Shown piece by piece: positions 35,071-59,793 of a stretch of 64,000 nucleotides of DNA. Both the position numbers and the translations under genes were made by a program. The notes below the pieces were generated by a model. The model was not told where the DNA came from, did no database searches, and saw only the letters and a list, made by a program, of their open reading frames with translations. Source of the stretch: Loigolactobacillus coryniformis subsp. coryniformis KCTC 3167 = DSM 20001 (lineage in GTDB: Bacteria > Bacillota > Bacilli > Lactobacillales > Lactobacillaceae); the NCBI RefSeq assembly GCF_002706425.1, contig NZ_CP017713.1, positions 2,418,001 through 2,482,000 on the forward strand. The letters are read 5' to 3'. How positions within the stretch are numbered: the first letter of the stretch is position 1; every line of letters begins with the position of its first letter.

Positions 35071-38000
35071 TTACTCGATGCCTAAAATCAACCGCACTTC
35101 TTCAGCCGTCAGTGAGCCTTTATTTTCGGTACCACTCAAGACTTGATCGACGAAATTGCGTTTCTCTTCCTGTAGTTTATAAATCTGTTCTTCAATCGTG
35201 CCTTTAGTGATCAAGCGATAGACTTCTACCGTTTTCGTTTGGCCGATGCGGTGTGCCCGAGCCGTGGCTTGATCTTCTACCGCCGGATTCCACCACAGAT
35301 CGACTAAAATAACCGTATCTGCGCCGGTTAGATTCAAGCCCGTGCCGCCAGCTTTTAATGAGATCAAAAAGACGCTCTTTTTGCCGGCATTAAAAGCATC
35401 GACCATCGCTAAGCGGTCCTTCGGCTTAGTATTCCCCTGTAACATAAAGCTGTCAAGGCCTTGCTGCTTCAATGCAGCCGCAATAATATTGAGCATGCCG
35501 GTAAATTGAGAAAAGATCAGCACTCGATGTTGGTTTTCTTGGGCTTGTTGCAAGATTTCTAGCAATTGCGTTAATTTACCGGATTCGCCCGGGTAGTCAT
35601 CGACAAATAAAGCCGGCGTATCACAAATTTGGCGCAAGCGAGTCAAGCCAGCTAAGATTGCCACGCTGTTTTTGACCAGCGTTTCCTTGGACATGCCGCG
35701 CACTTTGACTTGCATTTGCTTTAATTGCGCGAGGTAGACTTTTTTCTGTTCCTTGGACATTTCATTATATAAATTGGATTCAACCTTAGCTGGTAGATCC
35801 TTCAAAACGGCGGCTTTTTCCCGGCGCAAAATAAACGGCTTGACCCGTACCGCGATCTCGTCGGGCATTAACTTGTTAAACGCCTTTTTACTCGGTAATA
35901 AACCTGGCAGCACCAAGGCAAACAATGCCCACAATTCTTCCGCACGATTTTCGATCGGCGTCCCCGATAATGCAAAGGTGTTTTGCGGCTTTAATTTGCG
36001 TAAATTCTGGTTGGTTTGGGTACTGCTGTTTTTGACGTACTGCGCTTCATCCAAAACTAAGTATTTCAATCGTCGTTTTAGATAGGCGGTAATATCTAAC
36101 CGCGCGCTGTTATAGCTAGTGATCAAAACGTCAGCGTCACCTTGTGCGATCAAGGCTTGCCGCTGGGCTTTAGTGCCGTCAACCACCGCGACTTTGATGG
36201 TCGGCGCGAACTTAGTAAATTCAGCCTGCCAGTTGTAGATCAACGATGCCGGCGCGACGATCAGATCAAAGCGGTCAGCCGCCAAATGATTATTCAAAAA
36301 AGTGATCATTTGCAGCGTTTTACCCAAACCCATTTCATCAGCTAAAATTCCGCCAAAATTATAGGAATTCAGCATTTCCAGCCATTTGACCCCGACTTTT
36401 TGATAAGGCCGTAATTGCGCTGCCACCGGATTTGTGGCATGCGTTACCACGGGAAAAGCTTCTGGGTGGGCTAAATTTTGCAATAATTGCTGAAATTTCT
36501 GATCAAATTGCGCCGTATCGCCTAATGCCGCTTGGACGGCCAATGCCTGCGCTGCCGGGATCTCTACCTTACCGTTTTTAATTTTGCCTTGCGCCCGTAC
36601 TTTGGCTAACGCGGCGGAAACTTTTTTCAGCTGGTCATCGACGATCACGATCGACCCATCACCGCGGTCAATATAGGGCCGACTGACGTCTAATTGCGCT
36701 AAAACTTGATCAACCTCATCCTCTGCGATTCCGGAAATCGAAAAGTTGACCGCTAACAACCCATCTTCTTCAGTGACGTCGATCTGCGGGACGATCTCAC
36801 TCGCATCATGGAGTAAATCGGTTAGCGCCGGCGTCATGGTCACGACGCCATTTTGTTGCATGTTCGGTAATTCTGCGACAAAGAAGTGATACAATGCCGC
36901 AGCATCCGCAAAGTCTTTACGCCAATAACGCCCAACCTTGCGCAGGCCAAGGCTTTGTAAATAATCAAAAGCTTGTTCTTCCATCGGCAAATTACGGGTC
37001 ACATCAGCAGCCCCGATATCATCGCTAGCGATCAGCTGACCATTATAATCGTACGCCAGTGATAACACTAGCGTTTGTTCCTGCCGATCAAGATCGAAGT
37101 GCGGCACCATTTTGCCGACAGCTAGCGCTACTGGAAAGTCGATCACACCGATTTGTTGAAATAATTCGATGAAACGACTTAATTCAGCTTCACTGCCGGC
37201 AGAAAAGCGCAATGACTTAGTATTGGACCGTCTTTGCAATATTTCATTATAGTTGTTGATGATTGGTGCAATCACATTAAACTGCGCTCTTGTCACCTGA
37301 TACATAACGTTACCGCGGACAAAAATCAAATTAGCATTAATAAATTGGTCAAAATCAGAAGTCACCGCTAAGCGATAACCCCTCTGATCAGTGGTGATCG
37401 TTGCTTTAAACAATCCCGCTTCTGGCTGTAGATCCACTAATATCGCATTATCATATAATGTCTGCTGTTCAATAGGCTCAAACTTAAATTCTGGTACCGC
37501 TGCTAAAATTGCTAATGTCCGTGGAAAATCATATACAGGTAGGGCAAAAAATTTATCACCGCCGCCACCATAGTAACGTTCAACCGATTCACCAGTACTG
37601 TTGGCCATCAGAAAATCAAGTAGCACACGCTCAGCCGGTGCAAATGCCGTCGCAGTCATAACAAATTCATGTTTACTATTAGTCAGATAAGTCGCGCCAT
37701 TTTTATAGGCTTGTAGTAAACGTTCAATATTGTTGACCACATAAAAACGGCCTTTATCTGCAGTGGCGATTCGTAATTTCACACACAAACGCGTAATACT
37801 TTCATAGCCCCACTGATCAGTCATTGGTATTGCCACTAGCGTTACCTCTAAGCGTAAGGTATGTTCTTCACTATCTGTAGCTTCCAACGGGGTAAAAAAT
37901 TGCTGCGCCGGTAAACTAAGTTGCTCTAAAAAATATTGACCACTAGTTTTCTCTGGTCTTGGTTTAGGCTTAGCGACCAAATTATTAGCATATTGCGTGC

Positions 38001-38487
38001 GTAACTTATTTAATGAAGTCGGCGCCAAATCAGTTTCATCAAAAAGTTTACCCCATGAATCAGGATCAGCGCGCATTTGATCATACAGTTGCTTATCGGT
38101 GTAGACAAGCCGCCCGATTTCGGGAAATTCGTCTAATAAAGCTTCAAATTGCGCCGAGATATCTAAGTAGTCAGCCCCCATTTCAGCCGCAAAATTTTGA
38201 TCATCAGTGGCCCGATGAAATAAATTTTCCAGCGGCCGCCCCTGTGATTTCAGCAATTTAATTACCGCTGCAATATGTTTGCAATAACCATGATCGGGAA
38301 AATATGGGCATTCGCAATAATCACGACTTGAATCCTTGGCATTGACACTAACGCCATACGCCTGCGTCCCAAACACAGTCGCTTCAACTTCTTGGGCCAC
38401 ATTATCGATATATTCAATTTCAACTGCGCCGTCTAAGGCGATCTGCTTACCGCGGTTCCAAATTTTTGCCGGCATTGTGCGCGTCAT
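35071..38487 (-). CDS. SNF2-family DNA helicase/ATPase with N-terminal SWIM zinc finger
   Basis: A 1138-residue protein. Residues 58-71 (CECPYFPDHGYCKH) are a CxCx8CxH SWIM finger that binds DNA or protein. The middle (~90-600) is an SNF2-associated region (DUF3670-like/bacterial SNF2 N-terminus). The motor spans ~640-1138: ILADEMGLGKTLQMITF is Walker A, YLVLDEAQYVKN the DExx box, FALSGTPIENRAEEL motif III and DQATARAHRIGQTKTVEVYR motif VI. It moves on duplex DNA; this group acts in repair or defence, but in Firmicutes it is usually a housekeeping-like single gene. ATG after TTGGAGCGATAAT. It stands 950 bp from the jet cluster and may or may not be connected. Confidence 0.9.
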   Translation of the reverse strand: MTRTMPAKIWNRGKQIALDGAVEIEYIDNVAQEVEATVFGTQAYGVSVNAKDSSRDYCECPYFPDHGYCKHIAAVIKLLKSQGRPLENLFHRATDDQNFAAEMGADYLDISAQFEALLDEFPEIGRLVYTDKQLYDQMRADPDSWGKLFDETDLAPTSLNKLRTQYANNLVAKPKPRPEKTSGQYFLEQLSLPAQQFFTPLEATDSEEHTLRLEVTLVAIPMTDQWGYESITRLCVKLRIATADKGRFYVVNNIERLLQAYKNGATYLTNSKHEFVMTATAFAPAERVLLDFLMANSTGESVERYYGGGGDKFFALPVYDFPRTLAILAAVPEFKFEPIEQQTLYDNAILVDLQPEAGLFKATITTDQRGYRLAVTSDFDQFINANLIFVRGNVMYQVTRAQFNVIAPIINNYNEILQRRSNTKSLRFSAGSEAELSRFIELFQQIGVIDFPVALAVGKMVPHFDLDRQEQTLVLSLAYDYNGQLIASDDIGAADVTRNLPMEEQAFDYLQSLGLRKVGRYWRKDFADAAALYHFFVAELPNMQQNGVVTMTPALTDLLHDASEIVPQIDVTEEDGLLAVNFSISGIAEDEVDQVLAQLDVSRPYIDRGDGSIVIVDDQLKKVSAALAKVRAQGKIKNGKVEIPAAQALAVQAALGDTAQFDQKFQQLLQNLAHPEAFPVVTHATNPVAAQLRPYQKVGVKWLEMLNSYNFGGILADEMGLGKTLQMITFLNNHLAADRFDLIVAPASLIYNWQAEFTKFAPTIKVAVVDGTKAQRQALIAQGDADVLITSYNSARLDITAYLKRRLKYLVLDEAQYVKNSSTQTNQNLRKLKPQNTFALSGTPIENRAEELWALFALVLPGLLPSKKAFNKLMPDEIAVRVKPFILRREKAAVLKDLPAKVESNLYNEMSKEQKKVYLAQLKQMQVKVRGMSKETLVKNSVAILAGLTRLRQICDTPALFVDDYPGESGKLTQLLEILQQAQENQHRVLIFSQFTGMLNIIAAALKQQGLDSFMLQGNTKPKDRLAMVDAFNAGKKSVFLISLKAGGTGLNLTGADTVILVDLWWNPAVEDQATARAHRIGQTKTVEVYRLITKGTIEEQIYKLQEEKRNFVDQVLSGTENKGSLTAEEVRLILGIE

Positions 38488-39440: not shown

Positions 39441-40250
39441 TCATTTGGTGGCCAACCATTGCGGGATCAGCCGCTCGTATTCAGCTAGCAACTGTTCCTG
39501 TTCCACAAACTTACCGAACACTTGCAGTGAATCCATTTCCGTTTGATAAAGTGGTGTCGTCACTTGTAATTGCCGTGTGCGTTGCGGATCTTTTTTGCCG
39601 TATAAGGCCAGCCAACTAGCGACATCCACCGGTTGCTGCAAGGCCGCCACCACTTCGATCGGCGTTTGCTGTAATAATTGATAAAAGTGATCCGCCATTT
39701 GAATGCCGCGGCTATCCAAATCGCCGCTGTAGGCAAACTGAACCCCACGCTGTTCTAGGCGTTGGATCAAGCTGACGTAGGTCGGATTAAAATCATTGCC
39801 GCCTTGGGCGATCAGCGGCCAGTCGGGATGGCGCTGCAACAATAGCACGAACACACCATTATTTTCGATCACCACCGCCCGCTGATTGACCAACGGATGA
39901 TCCTGCATCGCCGCCGCTTGCCAAGGATTGAGCGTCAGCGGCTGCGGTAATTCGGTTTTAAATAAATTAGCGCTGGTAAAGGCCATTCCGATCAGGCGCG
40001 CCGATAATTCATTTAGCGGTGCCCCGGCAAAATAATGGCGCAATACCCAGTGATAGTAAGCAAATAAAGGTGGATCAGCTTGCGGATCATTTAGCGTGTG
40101 GGCGGTTAGGCCAAGCGCCACCGCTTGTTGCGCGCGCGGCGGTAACTTTTGACCGCTGGCGATGGCGGCAAATAGCGGCGTTAACTGTGCAGCATTGGCC
40201 GGGGCTGGGTGCCCGGTAGCTTGGGCATAAGCTTGTTGATAATCAGTCAT
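39441..40250 (-). CDS. JetD-like Toprim nuclease subunit of a Wadjet-type system
   Basis: A 269-residue protein. The C-terminal half is Toprim-like (DUF2399/DUF2220 type): VVIENNGVFVLLL has the conserved Glu (129) and FAYSGDLDSRGIQMADHF the DxD (177, 179), expected to bind Mg2+ and cut DNA once the SMC motor stalls on a closed plasmid loop. The N-terminal part (~1-110) is short; JetD proteins are commonly near 380-420 residues, so this one is compact. Start chosen at ATG 40250, overlapping the end of jetC by eight bases, with GAGGGTG upstream. Last of four co-oriented genes jetA-jetB-jetC-jetD. Confidence 0.8.
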   Translation of the reverse strand: MTDYQQAYAQATGHPAPANAAQLTPLFAAIASGQKLPPRAQQAVALGLTAHTLNDPQADPPLFAYYHWVLRHYFAGAPLNELSARLIGMAFTSANLFKTELPQPLTLNPWQAAAMQDHPLVNQRAVVIENNGVFVLLLQRHPDWPLIAQGGNDFNPTYVSLIQRLEQRGVQFAYSGDLDSRGIQMADHFYQLLQQTPIEVVAALQQPVDVASWLALYGKKDPQRTRQLQVTTPLYQTEMDSLQVFGKFVEQEQLLAEYERLIPQWLATK

Positions 40251-43200
40251 CAGTAGCACCCTCATGCCAGCTCAGCACCGGCAAGACTTGATTTTGATAG
40301 AAGCGGCCGTCATCTTGCTGCGGTGGCGCGATCACTTCGTAAGCCACGTTGGCAACACCGTCGGCCAACAGCTTATTCTGCGCGCCACTAGGCATGGTGG
40401 CAATAAAATCAAAGCCAAAATTAGCGATCGTTTTGGCGAATGATTTAGCGGTTTCTGGATCCAATTTATCGGCAAATTCATCGAACATGACCAGATACGG
40501 CACATCCGGTAAGCCACTGCGTTCCAGCAGCATTTTTGGTACTAGTAGTAGCGGCAGCACCATGGCTTGCGCTTTTTCGGCGCCGGAACCACCAGAGCGG
40601 ACAAACTTATCATCGACTTCTTCAAAGTCATCGACCCCACTTTGGCGGCGTTTGATCAGCACGTGAAATTCTGACCAGCGCCGGGTATCAAGAAATTCTT
40701 GGGCCGCCTGCATGAACGCCGCATCATCATCAGCGATTTCCGCTTTATTGGCTAGCATCTGCAGGCGGTCGCGAACTTCTTTTTCCAATGCCGGTCGCTG
40801 GGTGGCAAAGGCATCACAAGCTTCGGTGATCACCGCCGCACTGACTTCAGTCGGGCGCAATTCAATTTTTAATTTGATCCCTTGATCACTGGTCAAGCCA
40901 GCAGCCAAAATCCGATTGTAGTCGGCGATCACTTGATACTGATCCGCGATGCGTTCGACCGCCGCCGCCAAATAAGTATCCTGCGCCAATTGATTGCCGG
41001 TCTTTAATTCCGCAACTGCCTTAGTCACGCTAGCCAATTCTTCAGCTAGCAAAGTTTCGACGTGGGGCAAATCAAAAGCTAACGTAGTCATGTCATGGGC
41101 GACCACGCTACCTTGGCGCATGGCACTGGCGATTTGCTCATAGCCACGCTCGGCCAGTAACGTATCCAGCGCGTTGCGATCCAGCCCATTTTGATCACTG
41201 CGGTGGACTTGGCGGCGAATCCGTTCGGCAACTTCATTATAGGCGCCGTTCCGCACTTCACTACCGTGGGCGCGGACAAACGTATTGACTTCATCAACGG
41301 TGGTCAACGTGACTGCCGCTGGTAAATAAGGCACTAGCACCGTCAGCATGGTTTCGATCTGCGTGGTCAAAGCCGCCAATTGCGCGGCTTTACTGGCGAC
41401 CATTTTTTCCGCCGCAGTTTGTTGGCCTTGTTCCTGACCTTTGGCGGTTTCTAAATCTAGCTTTTGTGCACCTAAGTCAGCCACTGCTTGCTTAGTTTCC
41501 GCTAATTTAGCCGGCAATTCTGGATCGACCACTAATTGTGCGTGCTGTTGTTGCCAAACCTCGATTTGCTCACGAATTGCGGCTGGGTCAAAATCAACTT
41601 CCATCCCCGAGCGGATCAAATCAATATTTTCCTGCAAATTAGCCTGTGCTTGCTGGGTTGCAGCCTGTTGTTGAGTCAAGCTTTGCAATTGAGTTACGAT
41701 TGCGGCCAGTTGCTTTTGCTGCTGGGCCAAGTCGGCTAATAAGTCACTTTGCGCCAAGCTGACTTTCAGATCCGGATGCGCGGTCAGCAATGCCGCTTGT
41801 TCAGTTTTTAATTGCTGAAATTGACTATTCATTTGCGCGGCGCCGGCTTCATGAATTGATTGGTTATCTTGTTGTAAGCCTTCACGCAAGCGATTGCCAC
41901 CAAAAGGCCCCTGCACCCGGTGATCAATACTGTCCGCCATTTGGTTTTGCATGGTGCCGACGATCGCCACGTCAGTCGAAATAGTTTCGGCTTGTTGCTG
42001 CAAATTACGGTACTGCGTCAATTGCCGCCGCAAAGCGCGGACATAATGGGCCATTTGCTGCACCATGGTAGCCAAACTGGTTTCCGCTAGTACCTGGCTT
42101 AATTCGTGTAACTCTGCGCTGTGGGCATTCAGCTTGATCTGTAGCGGTGCCAGCGCAGTTTGGCGTACGTTTTTTTCTTGTTCAATAAGCTGGGTCAATT
42201 TAGTTTGGCTGACGGCGAGATCTTGTTGCCGCTGGCTTAATTGGGCTTGCGCCTGCTCATATTGAGCTAAGCGATTTTGCGCACCCTTGATCTGATCAGC
42301 CAAACTTTGCCGCTGCTGGACGATCACTTGCTGTTGCGCCTGCTTTTGAGTCAACTGCTGTAATTCAGTTTGGAAATCAGTTAGCCGAATCACTAGAAAT
42401 TCCAGCTGCTGGCTGTACTTAGCCACTTGAGCTTCGGCGCGGGCGGCGTTTTCTTTTTGCTGCTCGAACTCCACATGATTAGCAGCGTAAACACTTAATT
42501 TAGTTTCATTTAAATGATTTAGATCAGCCCAAAAGATGGCGCTTTTGATTTTCTGCAACCGGCGCTGTCCGTTGGCGATCCGCTGTAACAAGCCGTTTTT
42601 GCGATTGACTTCACGTTGGACGCCGGCTGCAGCTTGGATCACTTCCCGGTCAATACTGGCTTGCGCTTCGCGTAAGGCGGCCTTGATCGGCGAAAATTTA
42701 GCGTTGCCGCCAGTCAGAATCGGCGATGCCAACAGCCGATAAACATTAGCTAACTGGCTTAATTCCTTTTCGCTACTAAAGCCATAAACGTGGGTCGCAA
42801 CGAATTCGCGGTAGGCATCCGCTTTTTTGAAGACGGACAATTGCTGGCCTAAAGCTTGATTGGCGGCCACAAATGCAGCTTCAGTCAAGCTGGCACCCTG
42901 CGCATCAGTGGTGATCACCGTCAGCGGCGCCTTGGCTTCACTAATGGCCACAAACCACCACGTCGTCCCGCCGACACCTTGCGTCCGTTGCGCGCCGATC
43001 CCGAGAATCACCTGCCGTTGCGGACTGCGTAACTGCAAATAACTGTAGCCAGTCCGCACCTTCATCGCGCCCGGGCCCCAACCCAGCAGCATACTTTCAA
43101 ACGTCCGCGTGTCCTGCTGACTATTGCGTACCCGCGTCGATTGGGCAACTTTTTCCGTATCGCGGGCAGCGTTAAATGATGGCGTGGCGATCGAGCCATC

Positions 43201-43359
43201 GATCAGCATCGGAAAAAAGCAATTCGCCAACGTCGTTTTACCCGCGGCATTTTCACCGACTAAGGTGAGATTACCTAATTTCGACGTGGTTAAATCTAAG
43301 CGCACATATTTATTAAAATTACGTAAATGGTAGCTAACTGGTGTTAATTGCATGCTCAT
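40243..43359 (-). CDS. JetC/MksB-like SMC ATPase of a Wadjet-type system
   Basis: A 1038-residue SMC-like motor. Walker A is GENAAGKTT at residues 35-43; a long region rich in Gln, Ala and Leu (~280-470 and ~560-690, QQVIVQQRQSLADQIKGAQN and the like) forms the antiparallel coiled coil around a central hinge; the signature SGGSGAEKAQAMVLPLLL (~922-939) and Walker B YLVMFDEFADKLD (955-967) close the ATPase head. In Wadjet the JetC dimer with kleisin JetA extrudes DNA loops. ATG overlaps the jetB stop by ATGA, with GGAGGAAAA upstream, so translation is coupled. Shorter than MukB, near type I JetC in size. Confidence 0.88.
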   Translation of the reverse strand: MSMQLTPVSYHLRNFNKYVRLDLTTSKLGNLTLVGENAAGKTTLANCFFPMLIDGSIATPSFNAARDTEKVAQSTRVRNSQQDTRTFESMLLGWGPGAMKVRTGYSYLQLRSPQRQVILGIGAQRTQGVGGTTWWFVAISEAKAPLTVITTDAQGASLTEAAFVAANQALGQQLSVFKKADAYREFVATHVYGFSSEKELSQLANVYRLLASPILTGGNAKFSPIKAALREAQASIDREVIQAAAGVQREVNRKNGLLQRIANGQRRLQKIKSAIFWADLNHLNETKLSVYAANHVEFEQQKENAARAEAQVAKYSQQLEFLVIRLTDFQTELQQLTQKQAQQQVIVQQRQSLADQIKGAQNRLAQYEQAQAQLSQRQQDLAVSQTKLTQLIEQEKNVRQTALAPLQIKLNAHSAELHELSQVLAETSLATMVQQMAHYVRALRRQLTQYRNLQQQAETISTDVAIVGTMQNQMADSIDHRVQGPFGGNRLREGLQQDNQSIHEAGAAQMNSQFQQLKTEQAALLTAHPDLKVSLAQSDLLADLAQQQKQLAAIVTQLQSLTQQQAATQQAQANLQENIDLIRSGMEVDFDPAAIREQIEVWQQQHAQLVVDPELPAKLAETKQAVADLGAQKLDLETAKGQEQGQQTAAEKMVASKAAQLAALTTQIETMLTVLVPYLPAAVTLTTVDEVNTFVRAHGSEVRNGAYNEVAERIRRQVHRSDQNGLDRNALDTLLAERGYEQIASAMRQGSVVAHDMTTLAFDLPHVETLLAEELASVTKAVAELKTGNQLAQDTYLAAAVERIADQYQVIADYNRILAAGLTSDQGIKLKIELRPTEVSAAVITEACDAFATQRPALEKEVRDRLQMLANKAEIADDDAAFMQAAQEFLDTRRWSEFHVLIKRRQSGVDDFEEVDDKFVRSGGSGAEKAQAMVLPLLLVPKMLLERSGLPDVPYLVMFDEFADKLDPETAKSFAKTIANFGFDFIATMPSGAQNKLLADGVANVAYEVIAPPQQDDGRFYQNQVLPVLSWHEGATDD

Positions 43360-44363
43360 TTTTCCTCCGTTGTGGCTTGGACACTGAAACGCTGGGCGAT
43401 AGCGGTCGGCAAAACGTTCTGCCCTGCTTGAAGCGCTAAGCCATTGTCAAATAAAGCCGCGCGCACCTGCCCCACGGCCACTTTTTGCGGTGACCCAAAT
43501 AGTTGCGCAACGACTTGATGAATGCGCTGATTCAGTTGATCTTCCGGTAGCCCCGCACCCAGTGAGCGCGCCACCGCTAAAGCCACCGTGTACGGTCGGG
43601 CTGTGATTTGCTGACGCTGGCGATCCAACAATAACGCATAATCGGCGCCGACTTCCAGTTCAAACCGTTGTAACTGGGCCCACTGCGCAGCGATCACTTG
43701 CCGCTTCGCCACCAATATCGGCCATAAAGTCGGCGTGGTTTGCGGGCTTAAAAATGGCTGTAACAACAGCGCTTGATTGACCTGCTGCAATTCAGTCAAC
43801 GCTGGCTTTTTGACTTGGGCTTGCAAGTAATCAACTAGATTACGGGCGAAGCTGGCAAAATCAGGACTGACACTCCAATATTCGTCAATGATCGCTTCCT
43901 GATCGCTGGCCGCTTGCTCCAAGCGTTCGGGCGTCAATAGTTTAAACCGTTCAACGAACAATTGCCGAATCAAACGCAAAATTAATTTCTCATCTAGACT
44001 AACCACTTCACTGCGCACTTGGCGTACGATCGTCTGCGTCGCGACCACCCGCTCGTCGGCATTGGCTTGCAAACTGGGTTCGTTAAGCACTGTTTTCAAG
44101 GTCGCCAATAAAACGTGCACCTCATCCGCGCTTAATTGGCCGGGACCTGCCAGCCACAACAGATTTTCTTGATAATTATAGGGTGCCACGCCCAGCAGTT
44201 CCTTTAAATAACTGGTCACCCGCCGCTGGACCAGCGGCCGCTGAAAAGCCGTCACCGCGGTAGCCACATTTTGCGGCATTTCCGCTGTGATCGTACTGGT
44301 AAATAGGCCGCGATCAAGCAATTGGTCGATGATCAGGCGCTCATTTGCATGTAGTTCAACCAT
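43356..44363 (-). CDS. JetB-like (MksE/KITE) accessory subunit
   Basis: A 335-residue, mostly helical protein without enzymatic motifs. The C-terminal part (~250-325, TARPYTVALAVARSLGAGLP, VRAALFDNGLALQA) looks like a winged-helix KITE region that would bind the JetA kleisin. Identity is inferred mainly from its place between JetA and JetC and from its size and lack of other features; at 335 residues it is longer than many JetB proteins (about 200-250). ATG at 44363 follows GGGGGTGGCGCA. It overlaps jetC by four bases. Confidence 0.65.
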   Translation of the reverse strand: MVELHANERLIIDQLLDRGLFTSTITAEMPQNVATAVTAFQRPLVQRRVTSYLKELLGVAPYNYQENLLWLAGPGQLSADEVHVLLATLKTVLNEPSLQANADERVVATQTIVRQVRSEVVSLDEKLILRLIRQLFVERFKLLTPERLEQAASDQEAIIDEYWSVSPDFASFARNLVDYLQAQVKKPALTELQQVNQALLLQPFLSPQTTPTLWPILVAKRQVIAAQWAQLQRFELEVGADYALLLDRQRQQITARPYTVALAVARSLGAGLPEDQLNQRIHQVVAQLFGSPQKVAVGQVRAALFDNGLALQAGQNVLPTAIAQRFSVQATTEEK

Positions 44364-44378
44364 TGCGCCACCCCCTTC

Positions 44379-45887
44379 TTAAGTAAACCACACTTCAAAA
44401 CCATGCGGCAAAAAAACACTGTATTGTTCGCCGCGGCAATGAATGCGAATCGGTCCTGATTTTGGTAACGCCGCAACCCGCTGGACCGCACGGCCAAACG
44501 GGGCAAAGCTGGCATAATGCGTGTAACCAGTCGCGCTAAATAGGCGCACGATCTCGTCCCGCGCCAATAACGTCGTCAATTCCAGATCATGATCGATCAC
44601 CGCGTGCTGTGGCGCCCGCAAAACTAACTGCTGGAACTCCGCCAACGCCGCCGGACCCTCATTGGTAACAGCTGTCACCGCCGCCATTGCCGGATTATCC
44701 GCCGCCGTCAGCACCGGCGTAACTTTTTCCTGAGCCACGTACGTTACCGGACCAATCGTAGTCGCTTCCAGCAGATCAGCCATATTTTCCACGTCGATCC
44801 GATCAAATGGCGCATGCCGCGGCACCGCATCCGGCACTTTTAGCGTCGAATAATGCTGCAGCAACTCATCCAATTCACCAGTTAACTCCTTGATATCCAA
44901 CGTTTGTCGGCGGACGTGCTCAAATTCTTGGCTCAGCAACTTGATCGCATTTAAAATCGTTTGAAATAACAAATAAATCGAATCCAAACTACTATCGATT
45001 GCCTGACTACTGGCGGTAAAACTCAACGCCATTTGCTTTAATTGCCGCTGCACGTATGCTTTAGTACGGTTAAACCGTTGCAGCAGCCCAGCTTGATCGC
45101 CGACTGCATTGGCCGTATCCAGATCATCACTACCTTGTTGCGACCGCGCCACCTGCGCCGCAAAATCACGCAAGTTAGCTAATCCTTTGATATACGACGC
45201 TTGCTGCAACAATTGCCGATAAGCCGGCACCGCCTTTTGCTGGAGCATCTGCTGCAACTGTTCCGCCGCTACACCCCCATGGTTGAAAGCCAGATCATTG
45301 GCCAATTCATCCAGATCTTCATCTAACTTGTGCATGCCCTTCATGACGTCCTCGTAAGCCGCCAACATGTTGGCAAAATCATTATACAGTTGCGTCGTGG
45401 CCGCGCTGTTTGGTTCCTGCGCTAATTTACGAACTAAAGCGCAAAACTCATTGATCCGCAGCGTATTGGCCGTGACGGTGCTTTCCGCGTCGACCACCTT
45501 TTGCATCATCCGTAAATATTCGATGCCACTGCTGGTGATCCGGTAGATCGCCGTTTGCTGGATCAGCGACTTGCCGCTTTCCGTGTGCCGCCGCACCTTG
45601 CGCGTATTGGCCTCCACCAGCCCAGCCTGCTCCGTCAGTACATTAAGTACCTTACGCAAAACCTCATCGGAAATCGGCGCCTCATCATTGTCAGTGTCCA
45701 AATAATCGTTATTGTATTTACGCGCCAAAAAATCCAGCGTACTGGGCACGCCACTATTCGGGCTGTCGCGATACAAAATCATCAATAAATTCCAACCCGC
45801 CAGCGGATGATTACGGTTCAAACCTAATTCCGCCGCGAGTAATAATTTTTTCAACGGTTGCGCTAACGTTAGACTGATGGGACTCAC
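44379..45887 (-). CDS. JetA-like (MksF) kleisin subunit of a Wadjet-type system
   Basis: A 502-residue, helix-rich protein. The first ~130 residues resemble paired winged helices (AGWNLLMILYRDS, LRKVLNVLTEQAGLVEANTR, IYRITSSGIEYLRMMQKVVD), then long helical segments (~150-370, including QRQLKAQM-like KRQ runs) typical of kleisins, and a C-terminal domain (~390-502). It would bridge the two JetC heads and bind JetB. Start is GTG at 45887; TATACT on the minus strand (45921-45916) is a plausible -10, so it starts the operon. The four genes are richer in G+C than their neighbours by eye. Confidence 0.7.
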   Translation of the reverse strand: MSPISLTLAQPLKKLLLAAELGLNRNHPLAGWNLLMILYRDSPNSGVPSTLDFLARKYNNDYLDTDNDEAPISDEVLRKVLNVLTEQAGLVEANTRKVRRHTESGKSLIQQTAIYRITSSGIEYLRMMQKVVDAESTVTANTLRINEFCALVRKLAQEPNSAATTQLYNDFANMLAAYEDVMKGMHKLDEDLDELANDLAFNHGGVAAEQLQQMLQQKAVPAYRQLLQQASYIKGLANLRDFAAQVARSQQGSDDLDTANAVGDQAGLLQRFNRTKAYVQRQLKQMALSFTASSQAIDSSLDSIYLLFQTILNAIKLLSQEFEHVRRQTLDIKELTGELDELLQHYSTLKVPDAVPRHAPFDRIDVENMADLLEATTIGPVTYVAQEKVTPVLTAADNPAMAAVTAVTNEGPAALAEFQQLVLRAPQHAVIDHDLELTTLLARDEIVRLFSATGYTHYASFAPFGRAVQRVAALPKSGPIRIHCRGEQYSVFLPHGFEVWFT

Positions 45888-53440: not shown

Positions 53441-55005
53441 CTAAAGGTTGAAAGTATCAAAATAGACCGTAACCATTGATGTCAAAAGGTTATGGCACGA
53501 TATATTACTAGTTTCCACTTCATTGAGCATTACCGAGTAGCCTGGCCAGGCTATTCGGTAATGCTTTTATAAATTCGTCAAAAATAATAGTTAATGTTTC
53601 AACCGCCATGTCGAGTTTTTCACCTAGACCAGTAATTGTTTGTATCAGCCAATTCAACGCACTTACTAACTTAATATCAGGCAACGGTCGTCCATAATCG
53701 AAGAATAAGTCACCCAGCGTCCTGTCGTCCGTATTTTCACGTTGCACCAATGCAAGGACGTCATAGCTTAACATGACCATTGCTAGGTGACCGCAAAGCC
53801 CATCATAGCTTTGGACTTGAGTCTGATCAAATTGCAGGTATTGTTTAGCGACTTTAAAATAACATTCGATCTGCCAACGCCGACCGTACATCTGAATGAT
53901 TGCTTCTGGTCTTAGGTCAGTCATTGTGGTCGCCAACACAAGATATTGATCAGCCTGGCCACGTTTGGTTACGAAGACTAACTTCATTGGGATTTTTTCG
54001 CCATCAACTTCAAATGTGACGATTGGACTGTATAGATAGCTATCCTTAATTGGCCATTTACTGCGCCGTAAGTTAGTGTATAAAGTCTTAATATCCATTT
54101 CTCGGCCACGATAACGAAAATAGACTTTTTTAGTTTTTTTCAACATACCAATCCCATGACAATGACGTTTTAGCAATGCCGCAAACATACGCGGTGATGC
54201 ATACCAGCTATCGAATAAGACGTACTTGGCCTTGATGCCGGATTTGATTGCATCATCTACTAATTCTAAAGCGACATCGGTCATTTTACGGGTTGCCTGT
54301 GTACGTCGTTTCGCGGCCAGTGATCGTTGATCACTGGACTTAAGGTGCCCAAACCGATTTTTGGCGTGGCTTGATGACATCAAGGCAAAGTTCAGCGGTA
54401 AAAAAGTATTGCCGTCACTCCAGCCTAAAGTTAGTGTCCTAAAGCCTTTAAAATACTGCTGTTTGTCGTGGTCAAAACACGAGCTAATAATTCGGTTTTG
54501 CGTGAAAATTCACGTTTAAACAATGAATCATCAATGATCAAGGCTTGTCGCCGTCTTGGATCGGTAAAATGTTGCACGTATTGGATCAAATGGATCGCTA
54601 ATAGCTGAACCAGCCGTTGCCAATTAATATGTGGATCATTTAGACAATTGCGAACAGTTCGTTTTGAAAAATCGTTAGCCTTTTCTGCTCTAAAAATGGA
54701 GTAGCGATTAAAGATGGTGGTCAATAACCATTCAAATAAGCGTTCAGTTTTAATACCGCGCGATTTATGGATATTGACACGACGCAAAATAGCGGAGAGA
54801 TGGACCAATTTTGAAAAATGAGCAAAAGAATGATGAATATCAGTGTCATTGTATTGTATAGTAGACATAGGCATGAAACTCCTCTGTATGGTTTTTGTTT
54901 AGACGCTTTAAGTATACAGATGTGAATGGTTTCATGTCTATTTTTGTAGCAAAAAAGTCCTAACAGATCAGGGCTTAAGTGGAAATATTAACTTTCAACC
55001 TTTAG
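53441..55005 (-). mobile_element. IS4-family insertion sequence, copy 2 (1565 bp) with 7-bp target duplication
   Basis: Same length and ends as the element at 13711-15275 and the same sequence wherever I compared it, in the opposite orientation. ATAATAA lies directly outside both ends (53434-53440 and 55006-55012). The targets ATAATAT and ATAATAA suggest site preference. It lies in the space between rhaB and the divergent AraC-type regulator. Confidence 0.93.
53520..54874 (-). CDS. IS4-family transposase copy 2, same two-frame structure as copy 1
   Basis: The first frame 54874-54431 and the second frame (to 53520) translate identically to those of 13842-15196, with the DDE Asp in ALIIDDSLFKR and YGRRWQIECYFKVAKQ. 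The same frame break occurs, with the zero-frame TTTAAAG at 54452-54446. Two independent insertions with the same break show that it predates transposition. Confidence 0.85.
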
Positions 55006-55259: not shown

Positions 55260-55998
55260 ATGGACATAAAAATCTTTAAATCATTACAAGCATTGTCAGC
55301 CGTTGAACTTGAGCAGCAGCAAAATCACTATGTCAGCGACGATATTCCACCAGCTGCAATCGATTTAAAGGCAAGTCATGAATATAAGGTTCCGGTCATC
55401 AATAATGATTATTTTTTCAGAAATTGCAGTGTTGCTATTCGTAAACATAATCGCTTTGCACCTTATCCAGTACACACGCATCAATTTTTTGAGATCAACT
55501 ATATGCTTCGCGGACATGCAACAGAGTATGTTAATGATCATAAAGTTGTATTGAACGAAGGGGATGTTTTGTTATTAGATATTGGTAGCCAACATCGAAT
55601 TGATGCACTTGGCACAAACGATTTACTGATAAATGTGCTCTTTCGTGATCGCAATATCTCTTTAGATCTAATTTCTCAGATTCAAGCAGCTAAAAGTGTT
55701 CTCTATGACTTTCTAATTAACAATATGGCTACCAACCCTAAGAAGGGACAATATATTCTTTTTAAAAATTTTGGTAGCGGCAACAATGAGATTCAAGCCA
55801 CATTTGATGCCTTGATTACCGAGTATTATCATCAACGTGATTTTGCCGATACGATTATCAAATCACAGTTAACAATTTTAATTGCTCAACTCGTACGTAA
55901 TAATCGTATCCCAGTAACTACTACATCTCCTACTCAGAAGCTTGCAATAGACCTATTAGATGAAATTAGACAACATTATCAGGAAATTAGTTTAGAGG
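55260..55998 (+). pseudogene. AraC-family regulator of the rha genes, 5' part, split by IS21
   Basis: The 246 codons before the insertion form a cupin-type ligand-binding domain: FAPYPVHTHQFFEINYMLRG (~72-91) and VLNEGDVLLLDIGSQH are typical of AraC N-domains. GGGAGGGCGCT precedes the ATG. The frame continues as QEISLE and then enters IS21 sequence, ending after four foreign residues. Precise removal of 55999-58135 and one AGAGG copy joins it in frame to 58141, giving QEISLEALSNKYSYNKNYLS. Divergent from rhaB, so it probably activated rhaBMAD in response to rhamnose. Now inactive unless the IS leaves. Confidence 0.85.
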
Positions 55999-56058
55999 TG
56001 TCAAGGGCGGCGTAAAAATGTAGGTTTATGGCGGTTAAAAAATGTAGGTTTGTGGCGG

Positions 56059-56805
56059 TCAATCGGCTCCCTTAATTCGATAAGATTTACCGGTGATTTT
56101 AATTACGTAGGCATGATGAACCAACCGATCTAGAATAGCGGCAGTAACAGTCGGATTTTGAAAAGTTTCGACCCAGTTTGAGAGGTCGCTATTACTTGTA
56201 ATAATGGTTGAATGCCGCTCATACCGTGCATTGATCAATTGAAACAAAAGATTGGCTTCATCATGATTGATCGGTAAATAACCGATCTCATCAATGATCA
56301 ATAGCTCGTAGCGGGCATAACGACTAATGTTACGGTCTAACGTCCCTTTAGCATCAGCTGCCCGTAAATGCGCCAATAGTTCATGACAGTTGATAAAAAA
56401 AGCTCGTTTACCCTGATGACAAGCCTCAATACCGATACCAATCGCTAGATGCGTTTTCCCCACACCAGGACTACCAATGAAAATCAGATTCTTGTGTTGT
56501 TCGAGAAAGGCTAAGTCTTGAAAGCCTAAGATTTCTTGCTTATTAATACTGGGTTGAAAATTAAAATCAAAGGCGCTCAGGGCCTTCGCCTGAGGAAAAC
56601 GGGCCCGTTTGATGATTCGTGCTATTTGTTGGCTTTGTGTCCAGGCCAATTCAGTGTTCGTCAGCTCAAGCATGGCATCGGTAAATGAAAGCTGTTGCCC
56701 GTTGATCTGATCAATATATTCCGGCAAATAGGCGTGCATCTTACTTAATCCTAGAACATCGAGATTATTGAGTAACGCTTGGAATTTAGTTGTTGTTTGT
56801 CGCAT
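56059..56805 (-). CDS. istB: IS21 helper ATPase IstB
   Basis: A 248-residue AAA+ ATPase of the DnaC family that helps IstA choose and attack a target. LIFIGSPGVGKTHLAIGIG is Walker A (~95-113) and LLIIDEIGYLPIN Walker B. GAGGTGTAAC before the ATG at 56805, which lies two bases after the istA stop, gives coupled translation; an upstream in-frame ATG at 56826 is less well placed. Intact. Confidence 0.94.
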   Translation of the reverse strand: MRQTTTKFQALLNNLDVLGLSKMHAYLPEYIDQINGQQLSFTDAMLELTNTELAWTQSQQIARIIKRARFPQAKALSAFDFNFQPSINKQEILGFQDLAFLEQHKNLIFIGSPGVGKTHLAIGIGIEACHQGKRAFFINCHELLAHLRAADAKGTLDRNISRYARYELLIIDEIGYLPINHDEANLLFQLINARYERHSTIITSNSDLSNWVETFQNPTVTAAILDRLVHHAYVIKITGKSYRIKGAD

Positions 56806-56806
56806 G

Positions 56807-58030
56807 TTACACCTCGTCATAGGCACTCATATGGGCCGCAATATAAGCTTTGATGTCCGTCTCACTACGTCCCTTAAGTAGATCTGAACCAAGAATATTG
56901 ATCTGGTCATCCTCGTTGTAATTAAATTGCTGGGTTGTAATATCGTGCGCGCGAATCAATTCTCCGTTATAATAAATTTGGATGTGATGTTCATCATTAG
57001 ACAGTTCAATATTGACTGTCCGTCCGATATACCGTGGATCCACGGAGTATTTGCATTTGCGAAAGATAACCATTGATTCCTTCGACACGACACGGGTAAT
57101 GTCTTCTTCGAAGAAGGGTTTAAGTAGGTCATCTGGTAGCTGGTGCAGGTACTCTTTTTCTTCGGCCAGCCACTTATCTTGTGGGATTTCGTTGGTAGCC
57201 TGTGAGACCTCATGATTAAGTTCATCGCAGAGATTGTCAACTAAGTTAATCAACTCAACCCCATCACAGAACTCATAATTGTAGGGGCGTAGACGTTCAA
57301 CGGTGCGAGCTAATGCTTCAACTGAGCCTTTAGTTTGTGGTCTAAAAGCGCGACAAGCGATGGGTTTATAGCCTGCGTCCTGACTAAACTGACGAAAACG
57401 TTCATTGAAAACGGGGTGACCAAAGTTTGATTTTGAATGGTCAACGACTTGCTTCATGTTATCGAACCAGATCTCAGTTGGTACGCCGCCGGTGTGCCAA
57501 AAAGCGTCATCAAGGCAATTAAATAAAGTATCTTGGCTGCGTTCGAAAATCAAAGTCAAATATTTTAATTTTGAGTAAGGTAAGACATATAGAAAAATAT
57601 TAAAATGATAGGGCTTATTTTCCTTGTTGTAAAGCGTCATCTCCTCTTTCCAATCAACTTGGGCTGAAAGACCAGCAGTGTGTTCAACTCGGATCGTTGC
57701 TTTGTGCGTTCGCGCTTTACGAATAGAGGCACAATAGGTTTTAACGATCGTATATTGACCCTGAAAACCTTTCTTCTGAATGAACTTAAAAATCGCCATG
57801 GCTGAACAGTTCAGTTCAAGTTTGGCCTTGATAACATCACGATAGGGATCAAGCAGGCTAGGGCGTTGCTTTTTCTGTTTCTGTGGCTTGGCGTCACCTT
57901 CCTTTACTTCTTGATAAGCTTTCTTGGCAGTGCGATAGTCAACGTCATATTGTCTGCTTAAAGCGGCATAATTGGGTTCGATATCATTATCCACGTAACG
58001 TTTCACTCCTTCTCTAATGTCGTGTCTCAC
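56807..58030 (-). CDS. istA: IS21 transposase IstA
   Basis: A 407-residue DDE transposase. The N-terminal HTH (VKRYVDNDIEPNYAALSRQY, DVDYRTAKKAY) precedes an rve-type core with AQVDWKEEMTLYNKE (Asp), EIWFDNMKQVVDHSK (Asp) and RPQTKGSVEALARTVERL (Glu). The C-terminal region (VSKESMVIFRKCKYSVDPRY) matches Mu-type C domains of IstA. GTG start with GGGGAGG upstream. Frame intact, hence possibly active. Confidence 0.93.
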   Translation of the reverse strand: MRHDIREGVKRYVDNDIEPNYAALSRQYDVDYRTAKKAYQEVKEGDAKPQKQKKQRPSLLDPYRDVIKAKLELNCSAMAIFKFIQKKGFQGQYTIVKTYCASIRKARTHKATIRVEHTAGLSAQVDWKEEMTLYNKENKPYHFNIFLYVLPYSKLKYLTLIFERSQDTLFNCLDDAFWHTGGVPTEIWFDNMKQVVDHSKSNFGHPVFNERFRQFSQDAGYKPIACRAFRPQTKGSVEALARTVERLRPYNYEFCDGVELINLVDNLCDELNHEVSQATNEIPQDKWLAEEKEYLHQLPDDLLKPFFEEDITRVVSKESMVIFRKCKYSVDPRYIGRTVNIELSNDEHHIQIYYNGELIRAHDITTQQFNYNEDDQINILGSDLLKGRSETDIKAYIAAHMSAYDEV

Positions 58031-58135
58031 ATCATTAACCTCCCCGATTAAGATGTGATTAATGGTATCAAAAAATGTAGGAAAACCGACAATTTCTCAC
58101 CGCCCTTTTCCTACATTTTATAACCGCCGTTTACA

Positions 58136-58415
58136 AGAGGCGCTTTCTAATAAATATTCATACAATAAGAACTACCTTAGTAATCTATTCCATAAAGTAG
58201 TTGGTAAAACCTTTAGCGAGGCACTAACAGAAGAACGACTGATTCATGCTCGAGAATCAATTCAGCACACAGCACGTCCAATCACAGTAATATGCCATGA
58301 AGTAGGCTTTTCAAACAAAAGTTTCTTTTATCATAAATACGCTGAAAAATTTGGGTGCACGCCTAAAGAAGACCGTCAACTAGGTAAACAGCAATTTTTA
58401 ACCGCTAGTTTATAA
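58136..58415 (+). pseudogene. AraC-family regulator, 3' part (DNA-binding domain) after IS21
   Basis: After the AGAGG duplication the frame reads ALSNKYSYNKNYLSNLFHKV, VGKTFSEALTEERLIHARES, IQHTARPITVICHEVGFSNK, SFFYHKYAEKFGCTPKEDRQ, a standard pair of AraC helix-turn-helix motifs. It continues the gene started at 55260. On its own it has no ribosome site, and an open frame reaching into the IS (from 58062) is an artefact of the insertion. Confidence 0.88.
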
Positions 58416-58671: not shown

Positions 58672-59793
58672 ATGAAAATTAAAGCAGCAGTTGTTGCCGA
58701 ACAAGGCGCAGACTTTAAATTAAAAGATGATATTGAACTAGCAGAAATGCAAGCTGATGATATCCAAGTCCACATGGTAGCCAGCGGTGTCTGTCATTCC
58801 GACGAAGCTTTGCGCAAAGGTGACGCCACGATCGCTTATCCCATTGTGCTAGGCCATGAAGGCGCTGGGATCGTGGAAAAAGTTGGATCGCACGTTCAAA
58901 ACTTCAAACCTGGCGATCACGTTGTTTTATCTTTCTATGCTTGTGGTAATTGTGAAAACTGCCTCAAAGGGGTACCAACACAATGCTTGCATTACGCAGA
59001 TAACAACTTATCTGGCGTTCGTCCAGATGGTACCGCTCACTTTACTGAAAATGGTGAACAGGTCGCTGATATGTTCGATCAATCATCATTCACCACAACA
59101 ACCGTCGTGCGTGAACGTAACGCCGTCAAAGTTCCTGACGACTTAGACTTACGTAAATTAGGACCTTTAGGTTGTGGTTACGTCACTGGTAGTGGTACTG
59201 TCTTGAACACCTTACAACCACGTCCTGGTGACACAATTGCCGTCTTCGGGACCGGCGCTGTCGGTTTAGCTGCCATGATGGCGGGTAAGATCTCTGGCTG
59301 TATCAAAGTTATCGCCGTTGATATCGTGGACGAACGTTTAGCTTTAGCCAAAGAATTAGGTGCAACTGACACGATCAATAGTAAAAATGAAGATCCCGTA
59401 GCTGCGATCAAAGCCTTAACTAACGGCCGTGGTGTTAACTTTGCCGTTGATACTACTGGCGTTACCCAAGTTATGGAATCCTCGATCAAAGCTCTAGCGC
59501 AAGGTGGCGTTTCCGCTTGTATCGCCGTCACGGCTCACCACATTGATCTTGATACCTGGAATGACCTTTGTGTTGACGACAAATCAGTGATCGGCGTTAA
59601 CATGGGTGATTCAATTCCACAAATTGATATTCCTCGCTTGATTGAATTCTACCGTCAAGGGATGTTTGATTTTGACAAGACTGAGAAATTTTATAGTTTT
59701 GATCAGATCAATGAAGCTAACGCTGACTCGATCAGTGGTAAGACGATCAAACCCGTATTGGTGATCGATCCTGAATACCAACCTGGGAAATAA
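58672..59793 (+). CDS. Zinc-dependent alcohol dehydrogenase, first copy
   Basis: A 373-residue MDR enzyme, NAD-dependent by its GTGAVGLAAM Rossmann loop and acidic VDIVDE. Catalytic zinc ligands Cys (SGVCHSDEA, ~39), His (LGHEGAG, ~61) and Cys (LGPLGCGYVTG); structural zinc cysteines in YACGNCENCLKGVPTQC (four Cys, ~94-108). Sequence resembles long-chain or aryl alcohol dehydrogenases (XylB/AdhC-like). ATG after AATAGGAGTG. 357 of 373 residues match the copy at 62342-63463. It reduces aldehydes or oxidises alcohols; substrate not defined. Confidence 0.92.
   Translation: MKIKAAVVAEQGADFKLKDDIELAEMQADDIQVHMVASGVCHSDEALRKGDATIAYPIVLGHEGAGIVEKVGSHVQNFKPGDHVVLSFYACGNCENCLKGVPTQCLHYADNNLSGVRPDGTAHFTENGEQVADMFDQSSFTTTTVVRERNAVKVPDDLDLRKLGPLGCGYVTGSGTVLNTLQPRPGDTIAVFGTGAVGLAAMMAGKISGCIKVIAVDIVDERLALAKELGATDTINSKNEDPVAAIKALTNGRGVNFAVDTTGVTQVMESSIKALAQGGVSACIAVTAHHIDLDTWNDLCVDDKSVIGVNMGDSIPQIDIPRLIEFYRQGMFDFDKTEKFYSFDQINEANADSISGKTIKPVLVIDPEYQPGK

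What the first reader, a model, noticed from the sequence alone, without database searches (positions are those of the whole stretch)
39441..45887. Compact Wadjet/MksBEFG-like (JetABCD) SMC defence cassette
Four minus-strand genes in the order kleisin (502 aa), KITE-like (335 aa), SMC ATPase (1038 aa, Walker A GENAAGKTT, signature SGGSGAEKAQA, Walker B YLVMFDE) and Toprim protein (269 aa, Glu129, DLD 177-179). They overlap or lie within 15 nt, with ATGA coupling. By established knowledge, Wadjet systems cut closed circular plasmids after loop extrusion. The JetD here is much shorter than the usual ~400 residues and JetB longer than usual, so it does not fit a subtype I can name. The block is also visibly richer in G+C than its neighbours, suggesting acquisition.
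Basis: partly seen in the sequence, partly recalled or inferred. Interest (0 to 1): 0.82.

Follow-up and report, generated by a model that had tools for sequence, protein, structure and literature searches.

The report
Compact Wadjet plasmid-defence operon of lactobacilli
Four neighbouring genes in this lactobacillus look like a stripped-down version of a known bacterial machine that reels in and cuts foreign circular DNA; the version forms its own branch, found so far only in lactobacilli and lacking parts that the known machines have.

Summary
In detail: four coupled minus-strand genes encode a kleisin (JetA, 502 aa), a probable KITE protein (JetB, 335), an SMC ATPase (JetC, 1038) and a Toprim nuclease (JetD, 274 or 269). 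Wadjet is supported: the JetD model matches MksG, topoisomerase VI-A and JetD; the JetA model matches Wadjet-II JetA and MukF; JetC and JetD are nearest to type II. No library model names JetA; evidence for JetB is weak and comes from relatives. The subtype puzzle resolves into a distinct lineage: one clade in trees of the nuclease and of the SMC heads, beside type II but outside the sampled type II. JetD lacks about 120-150 N-terminal residues; JetC is about 320 residues shorter than in type II, mostly in distal coiled coil and hinge. JetA matches occur in 41 of 301 Lactobacillaceae genomes (25 of 40 places read hold all four genes whole), and the 51 loci found in species genomes all bear lactobacillus names. 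Acquisition from outside is weakly supported, as operon G+C follows host G+C. Most likely function, inferred: cutting small circular plasmids after loop extrusion. A new variant of a known kind.

The parts
44379..45887 (-). JetA-like kleisin, 502 aa: N-terminal winged-helix-like part (about 10-117), long helical middle (119-345), low-confidence linker (about 380-410), C-terminal winged-helix-like domain (411-502)
   Evidence: AF2 model mean pLDDT 79.7; first PDB matches MukE-MukF chain and Wadjet-II JetA; no Pfam, NCBIfam or PADLOC family credibly names it
43356..44363 (-). JetB-like, probable KITE protein, 335 aa
   Evidence: Relatives match PADLOC JetB2 (best 4.6e-6) and JetB1 (3.7e-5) and Pfam MksE (4.6e-4, 2 of 21) and DUF4194 (0.0054, 1 of 21); profile comparison with type II JetB E 0.0015, probability 17%; structure not predicted
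40243..43359 (-). JetC-like SMC ATPase, 1038 aa: N-head about 1-265, coiled coil, short tip about 465-510 in place of a hinge, coiled coil, C-head about 738-1038
   Evidence: PADLOC JetC2 1.3e-22, TIGR02680 4.5e-17 but below its cut-off, SbcC_Walker_B above cut-off; profile match to type II JetC 1.8e-30; tip alignment
41848..41967 (-). Short conserved tip of JetC (residues 465-504, GPxxGRxRxGLHQDNxxIHxAG region), proposed minimal dimerisation element (inference)
   Evidence: Alignment of 19 compact JetC proteins: I478, D498, N499 and H503 are among the invariant positions
39441..40265 (-). JetD-like Toprim nuclease, 274 aa (269 from the ATG at 40250); Toprim half about residues 88-269, catalytic E129/D177/D179 in the 269-aa numbering
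   Evidence: DUF2399 and JetD_C above gathering scores; AF2 mean pLDDT 94.6; PDB matches; invariant residues
39369..39416 (.). Inverted repeat AAAAGCCGC...GCGGCTTTT between the operon and the neighbouring convergent SDR gene, probable two-way terminator
   Evidence: Read by eye; not among the hits of the terminator scan

Best explanation
The block is a complete Wadjet-type SMC nuclease operon of a separate, compact lineage. Two JetC proteins, closed by JetA and bound by JetB, use ATP to reel in DNA as a loop; when a small circle has been fully reeled in, the JetD dimer is switched on and makes a double-strand cut, so that plasmids and other small circles are lost while linear DNA and the large chromosome are spared. 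Shown here by sequence or model: operon structure, SMC motifs, kleisin-like fold, JetD-type Toprim with intact E/D-x-D residues, and the position of the lineage beside type II. Inferred from relatives in print: extrusion, circle sensing and cleavage. Also inferred: with a tip of about 40 residues instead of a hinge it should, like the studied type II complex, be unable to pass obstacles, and the shorter coiled coils and missing JetD N-terminal part mean a different handling of the nuclease by JetABC.
For: Four-gene order conserved: 36 of 51 named-species loci intact by a 90% coverage rule, median lengths A 506, B 337, C 1043, D 270.5 aa; 25 of 40 family-genome places. JetD fold: MksG Z 16.4, topoisomerase VI-A 14.0, JetD 13.0. 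JetA fold: MukE-MukF chain and Wadjet-II JetA first in Foldseek, Wadjet-II JetA first in VIA-align. JetC against type II JetC E 1.8e-30, JetD against type II JetD E 9.9e-17. Trees: compact plus II against I plus III, support 99/95 (JetD) and 100/100 (JetC heads). Catalytic residues in 43 of 43. The host also has ScpA (E 5.6e-46), so this is not its only condensin. Patchy: JetA match in 41 of 301 family genomes. Function of relatives: PMC12647877 (passages and section 7) and PMC10586767 (section 7 and passages).
Against: No plasmid-cutting test of this lineage was found. JetA has no sequence-level match to type II kleisins (hhalign E 0.35, probability 0.2%); its model is only moderate, the best fold match has rmsd 23.7, unrelated helical bundles follow at Z 12.9, and MukF chains come lower in VIA-align (Z 11.3 and less, rmsd 13-15 for most). 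JetB was not modelled. The JetD matches cover residues 88-269 only, so the CAP part is unproven. No clear defence neighbours: of 10 window flank genes only the SNF2 helicase gives strong PADLOC hits (DpdE, ZorD), over its general helicase core. No copy was found in phage or plasmid records with JetA, nor in viral contigs with JetD. In two genomes of one genus JetABC stand without a neighbouring JetD, and in two other loci JetD stands alone, which a strict four-part machine would not predict.
Confidence: 0.8

Rival explanations
1. It is simply a fast-evolving member of Wadjet type II, with shortened proteins, working exactly like the N. vireti complex.
For: JetC and JetD are closest to type II; both trees put it next to type II; gene order JetA-B-C-D is the same.
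Against: It falls outside sampled type II in both trees: compact is one clade at 97/95 and 100/100, and sampled type II is one clade at 91/96 in the JetD tree (in the JetC tree one long type II row, L126, falls beside it, so II needs two changes). JetC and JetD score far below the TIGR02680 and TIGR02679 cut-offs (61.2 of 462.85 and 36.1 of 196 bits). Long branches make the exact place unsure.
Confidence: 0.35
2. It is an accessory chromosome-organising complex (MksBEF/MukBEF-like), and JetD or plasmid cutting is secondary.
For: JetA resembles MukF; two loci have JetABC without JetD beside it.
Against: JetD with intact catalytic residues accompanies the system in most loci read; distribution is patchy (41 of 301); the host carries ScpA of the housekeeping Smc complex.
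Confidence: 0.1
3. It defends mainly against phages rather than plasmids.
Against: The JetABCD relatives described in the passages read act on circular plasmids; the operon carries JetD, the Wadjet nuclease.
Confidence: 0.07

Closest known systems
Wadjet type II (JetABCD-II; N. vireti nvJET, PDB 9QE0/9QE1)
   Same: Gene order; JetC and JetD nearest by profile and by tree; nvJET JetA is the JetA model's best VIA-align match; nvJET has a hinge without the usual channel (PMC12647877), here the tip is even smaller.
   Different: 20 type II loci read here: A 486-532, B 378-442, C 1349-1423, D 364-501 aa (19 of 20 at 420 or more), against medians of 506, 337, 1043, 270.5. JetA and JetB barely or not recognisable by sequence; the JetC stretch matching type II 400-739 is cut to about 107 residues; JetD lacks the N-terminal part.
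Wadjet types I and III
   Same: SMC, kleisin, KITE and Toprim nuclease operon; JetC of similar length (1094-1172 aa, 10 loci).
   Different: JetB only 202-224 aa, and JetD 393-429 aa in the 8 loci with a whole JetD; JetA families DUF3375 and PF18982 do not match the window's JetA and were found in 0 of 89 and 0 of 301 Lactobacillaceae genomes (the 14 control genomes do not ring, but the same model rings in 26 of 149 phylum genomes).
MksG and topoisomerase VI-A / Spo11
   Same: Toprim half of JetD (residues 88-269), Z 16.4 and 14.0.
   Different: The N-terminal part is far shorter; no TopoVI-B partner was looked for.
MukBEF / MksBEF
   Same: JetA resembles MukF; 2 of 21 JetB relatives weakly match MksE.
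   Different: Has a nuclease gene; patchy; SMC nearest to type II Wadjet in sequence.

Membership tests
Wadjet (JetABCD) in general | SMC-type ATPase with Walker A, signature and Walker B | tested here: met
Wadjet (JetABCD) in general | Kleisin subunit encoded beside the SMC gene | tested here: met
   By predicted fold only: MukE-MukF chain and Wadjet-II JetA rank first in Foldseek; sequence comparison is negative
Wadjet (JetABCD) in general | KITE subunit | tested here: inconclusive
   Some relatives match JetB1/JetB2 and MksE models; window protein E 0.084 only; fold not predicted
Wadjet (JetABCD) in general | JetD nuclease with Toprim E and D-x-D | tested here: met
   DUF2399 44.5 bits (cut-off 23.4) and JetD_C 23.6 (22); fold; residues in 43 of 43
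Wadjet (JetABCD) in general | CAP domain before the Toprim domain of JetD | tested here: inconclusive
   Model shows four helices before residue 88 and a weak MecI winged-helix match, E 0.036-0.046, over profile positions 23-78; the VIA-align rows cover 85-269 for the most part
Wadjet (JetABCD) in general | ATP-dependent cleavage of circular DNA | not testable with these tools
   Needs protein or strain experiments
Wadjet type II | JetC over the TIGR02680 cut-off | tested here: not met
   61.2 bits against 462.85; in 301 family genomes only 2 pass
Wadjet type II | JetD over the TIGR02679 cut-off | tested here: not met
   36.1 bits against 196
Wadjet type II | JetA and JetB of the type II families (DUF2397, DUF2398; names partly recalled) | tested here: not met
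   No DUF2397/DUF2398 match for the window proteins in Pfam, nor in the tables for 21 relatives of each (first 25 of 35 families shown, all 17); some JetB relatives match PADLOC JetB2 (DUF2398), best 4.6e-6
Wadjet type II | Falls inside the type II clade | tested here: not met
   Beside sampled type II in both trees; long branches, 17 type II rows
Wadjet type I | DUF3375 kleisin and DUF4194 JetB | tested here: not met
   No match of the window proteins at E up to 1; own genome not hit by DUF3375. Against this: 1 of 21 JetB relatives matches DUF4194 at 0.0054
Wadjet type III | JetA family PF18982 | tested here: not met
   No match; own genome not hit

The most novel reading that the evidence does not exclude
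A fourth, type-level Wadjet lineage that has been the main Wadjet of lactobacilli while going unnamed in the libraries searched: an almost hinge-less loop extruder whose two SMC arms are held by a tip of about 40 residues with invariant Asp-Asn and His, driving a JetD without the N-terminal arm. If so, it is the smallest natural nuclease of this kind known to me, it shows that neither a toroidal hinge nor the arm is needed for circle sensing, and its invariant Tyr65 (43 of 43) with Tyr66 (42 of 43) before the Toprim domain might even hint at chemistry beyond plain hydrolysis.
Probability: 0.35. Interest if true: 0.75.

Novelty: new variant of a known kind. Interest (0 to 1): 0.55.

Why it matters
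Wadjet is a well-studied case of an SMC machine that measures DNA shape. A natural variant that has lost most of the hinge and a large part of the nuclease's N-terminal half shows which parts are dispensable and gives a direct test of the published idea that the hinge is the gate for obstacle bypass. For lactobacilli, some of which are hard to transform (recalled), it names a likely genetic barrier: in the sampled species it is commoner than the recognised types (JetA match, fragments included, in 41 of 301 genomes; type II JetC over its cut-off in 2 of 301; type III JetA in 0 of 301; type I JetA in 0 of 89). The profile libraries searched here miss its JetA and most of its JetB.

Tried and rejected
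Topoisomerase or primase instead of JetD: primases are matched only at Z 7.8 or less, against 16.4 for MksG and 13.0 for JetD. Topoisomerase VI-A itself is close (Z 14.0), as expected for a relative of JetD; I looked for no TopoVI-B partner.

Type I or III membership: no match of window proteins to DUF3375, DUF4194 or PF18982. JetA's Pfam hit to ASL_C (1.1e-4, below its cut-off) is judged a helical chance match.

Sequence proof of the kleisin failed: hhalign against type II JetA gave E 0.35, probability 0.2%, 0.16 with more rows, though the weak local alignment is collinear over about 390 columns; comparisons between non-corresponding subunits gave 0.06-0.68, so these values are no evidence. 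A forced global alignment gave nothing (0.97). PDB searches by profile gave only chance-level hits for JetA and JetB (E 6 and 1.5), and weak MecI (0.036-0.046) and MksG (1.6) hits for JetD.

Mobile carriers: none in plasmid or phage records with JetA, none in viral contigs with JetD (86 pattern matches, no relative). Defence neighbours: flank families recurring in the 36 intact loci (5 kb each side, the 14 largest read by eye) look like ordinary genes; no PADLOC scan of those flanks was run. Of 10 genes around the operon in the window, PADLOC gives the SNF2 helicase strong hits to DpdE and ZorD over its helicase core, plus one hit each for the ORFs at 32114 and 33252 (9.3e-7 and 7.9e-4, short stretches); I take these as general domains. 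Promoter and terminator scans were at chance level (6 against 7.8; 11 against 10.1).

Literature: searches listed no paper that I recognised as describing this lineage; I opened four (PMC10586767, PMC12647877, PMC12287153, PMC13304284), only in passages or single sections. The library lacks most subscription journals; the N. vireti structure paper (Structure 2025) was seen only as a reference. PMC13304284 reports Wadjet by DefenseFinder in 9.38% of 1344 lactic acid bacteria genomes; some of these may be the compact form, so I do not claim that no tool detects it.

Full report
Where it lies. The window is part of a 2.95-Mb single-contig genome. Its genus code is shared with G147 and G191, whose contig lengths (112,694 and 61,362 bases) equal those of Loigolactobacillus jiayinensis and L. 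bifermentans records; the genus is therefore inferred to be Loigolactobacillus. The operon sits between a short-chain dehydrogenase and an SNF2 helicase on one side and a DDE transposase and rhamnose genes on the other (the rhamnose names are recalled from the sequences).

Observation. The four ORFs, their overlaps and motifs are as described. JetD can start at either of two ATGs (274 or 269 aa). Pfam gives DUF2399 (44.5 bits, cut-off 23.4) and JetD_C (23.6, cut-off 22) for JetD and SbcC_Walker_B for JetC; JetA and JetB have no credible match. PADLOC gives JetC2 1.3e-22 and JetD2 1.7e-13 but nothing for JetA and only JetB1 at 0.084 for JetB. NCBIfam gives TIGR02680 and TIGR02679 far under their cut-offs.

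Conservation. The window's JetA has relatives in 41 of 301 Lactobacillaceae genomes, in 13 of 40 genera, weak and broken ones included. I fetched 40 of these 41 places; 25 of the 40 carry all four genes in single ORFs covering 90% or more of the profiles, the rest being split, partial, cut by contig ends or mere fragments. A pattern scan with JetD in the species-genome collection gave 51 loci, all under lactobacillus names; by the same rule 36 of 51 are intact. A search of 398 genomes of the phylum with the JetD profile found 47 others with matches: 45 in open frames of 424-534 aa and two in frames of 130 and 355 aa, so no compact JetD outside the family in that draw. A search of 295 genomes of the order with JetA found 6, own included, all in the family. 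The distribution claim is bounded by these samples, and the pattern scan needs exact pattern matches.

Other Wadjet types in the family. TIGR02680 passes its cut-off in 2 of 301 genomes, the type III JetA family is found in 0 of 301 (the 14 control genomes do not ring, but the same model rings in 26 of 149 phylum genomes), the type I JetA family in 0 of 89 (rings in one control genome). The compact form is thus the commonest Wadjet seen in this sample.

What the proteins are. JetD: AlphaFold2 from 43 sequences, mean pLDDT 94.6, pTM 0.90. Foldseek's first hits are topoisomerase VI-A (1.2e-4), MksG (1.5e-4) and JetD (2.9e-4); VIA-align gives MksG Z 16.4 (rmsd 2.5, 161 aligned), topoisomerase VI-A 14.0 (2.9, 175) and JetD 13.0 (3.2, 162), all within residues 88-269. 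E129, D177 and D179 are unchanged in 43 of 43. Profile alignment puts compact residues from 94 on upon type II columns 245-434; a forced global alignment starts only at column 123, with an unreliable N-terminal part. So about 120-150 N-terminal residues are missing. JetA: model from 37 sequences, mean pLDDT 79.7, pTM 0.56, with terminal winged-helix-like parts and a helical middle; Foldseek's first two are a MukE-MukF chain (3.9e-4) and chain E of the N. vireti complex (5.9e-4), which is JetA; VIA-align puts that JetA first (Z 14.1, 270 aligned, but rmsd 23.7, so the domains are placed differently). STAT and syntaxin-like helical bundles follow at Z 12.9 and lower, and MukF chains at Z 11.3 and lower (rmsd 13-15 for most), so the helical middle alone is not diagnostic; the order of domains and Foldseek's ranking carry the argument. 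JetB: indirect evidence only.

JetC. Local profile alignment maps compact 1-399 on type II 1-400 and 738-1015 on 1006-1336 with small gaps; the stretch 400-507 stands against type II 400-739, so about 230 of the roughly 320 missing residues lie there (alignment inside coiled coil is unsure). In type II this holds a conserved domain (PYxPFYxAVEFK...), in compact JetC only a short tip with DVxIV, GP-R and QDNxxIHxAG. Arms of about 200-215 residues are estimated from the symmetry of the sequence (inference). nvJET of type II lacks the channelled hinge and did not bypass obstacles (PMC12647877, section 7 read), so the same is predicted here.

Place among types. Type II loci (20) have A 486-532, B 378-442, C 1349-1423, D 364-501 aa, and their JetA, JetB and JetC profiles match the solved N. 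vireti complex (the JetD profile matches no PDB sequence at E 0.01). In a JetD Toprim tree of 42 rows and a JetC head tree of 42 rows the compact rows are one group (97/95 and 100/100) and stand with type II against I plus III (99/95 and 100/100). The root is not known, the compact stem is long (1.4 and 3.7 changes per column), and treekit warns that long branches meet; in the JetC tree one long type II row (L126) falls beside the compact clade. I therefore claim a lineage next to type II, not a proven fourth type.

Acquisition. The operon is 9.5 points richer in G+C than the rest of the window, but across 45 loci operon G+C runs from 31.5% to 62.0% with the host and the mean excess is 1.6 points (33 of 45 positive). 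This fits long residence in lactobacilli with some transfer between them. In L. jiayinensis a similar SDR gene (84% identical) and a similar SNF2 gene (61%) lie on the two sides of the operon, whereas in the window both lie on the JetD side, so the operon or the SDR has moved locally.

Decay. JetC is the part most often split (L133, L145, L163, L164, L165, L169 and L176 of 51). JetABC without a neighbouring JetD, JetD without JetABC, and a JetB-JetD fusion left by loss of JetC also occur. Sequencing frameshifts cannot be ruled out for single splits. The pattern suggests a cost of keeping the motor active (inference).

Verdict. A real, complete and conserved operon; a Wadjet by architecture and by fold or motif for three of four subunits, KITE status probable; not a member of types I, II or III as these are defined by their models; function inferred.

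Noticed in passing
L046 (G009) and L050 (G106), same genus: JetA, JetB and JetC of the compact type with no JetD beside them; whether JetD lies elsewhere in these genomes was not tested. A naturally disarmed system would be informative.
   Followed up: partly
L146:10076-10819 and L170:9959-10819: Intact-looking JetD genes without JetABC; in L146 the EamA-type transporter gene (named from its sequence) found upstream of the operon in several Levilactobacillus loci directly precedes JetD, as if JetABC had been cut out.
   Followed up: partly
L041:6625-8163 (G049): In-frame fusion of the JetB N-terminal part with JetD from about residue 43, JetC wholly missing: a deletion product with JetA upstream.
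   Followed up: partly
L252:7650-10073: A Lactobacillaceae type II Wadjet in which JetA and JetB appear as one 807-aa reading frame.
   Followed up: no
39441-40250, JetD residues 65-66: Tyr65 is unchanged in 43 of 43 and Tyr66 in 42 of 43 compact JetD proteins, in the part before the Toprim domain; a review (PMC10586767) says the JetD CAP lacks the topoisomerase tyrosine. Role unknown.
   Followed up: partly
55260-58415: An AraC-type regulator beside the rhamnose genes is split by an IS21-like element (IstA/IstB-like ORFs 56059-58030) with imperfect terminal inverted repeats near 55999-56051 and 58083-58135.
   Followed up: partly
14333-15196 and 53520-54383: Two identical 287-aa transposase ORFs (DDE_Tnp_1), each next to a 147-aa ORF: two copies of one insertion sequence in the window.
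   Followed up: partly
58672-59793 and 62342-63463: Two alcohol dehydrogenase-like genes (named from sequence), proteins 95% identical, starts about 3.7 kb apart with a 452-aa transposase-like ORF (also named from its sequence) between them.
   Followed up: partly
35071-38487: SNF2 helicase with SWIM zinc finger; PADLOC scores it strongly to DpdE (1.7e-122) and ZorD, over the helicase core. Probably a general SNF2 protein, also found in 5 of 7 other genomes of the genus.
   Followed up: partly
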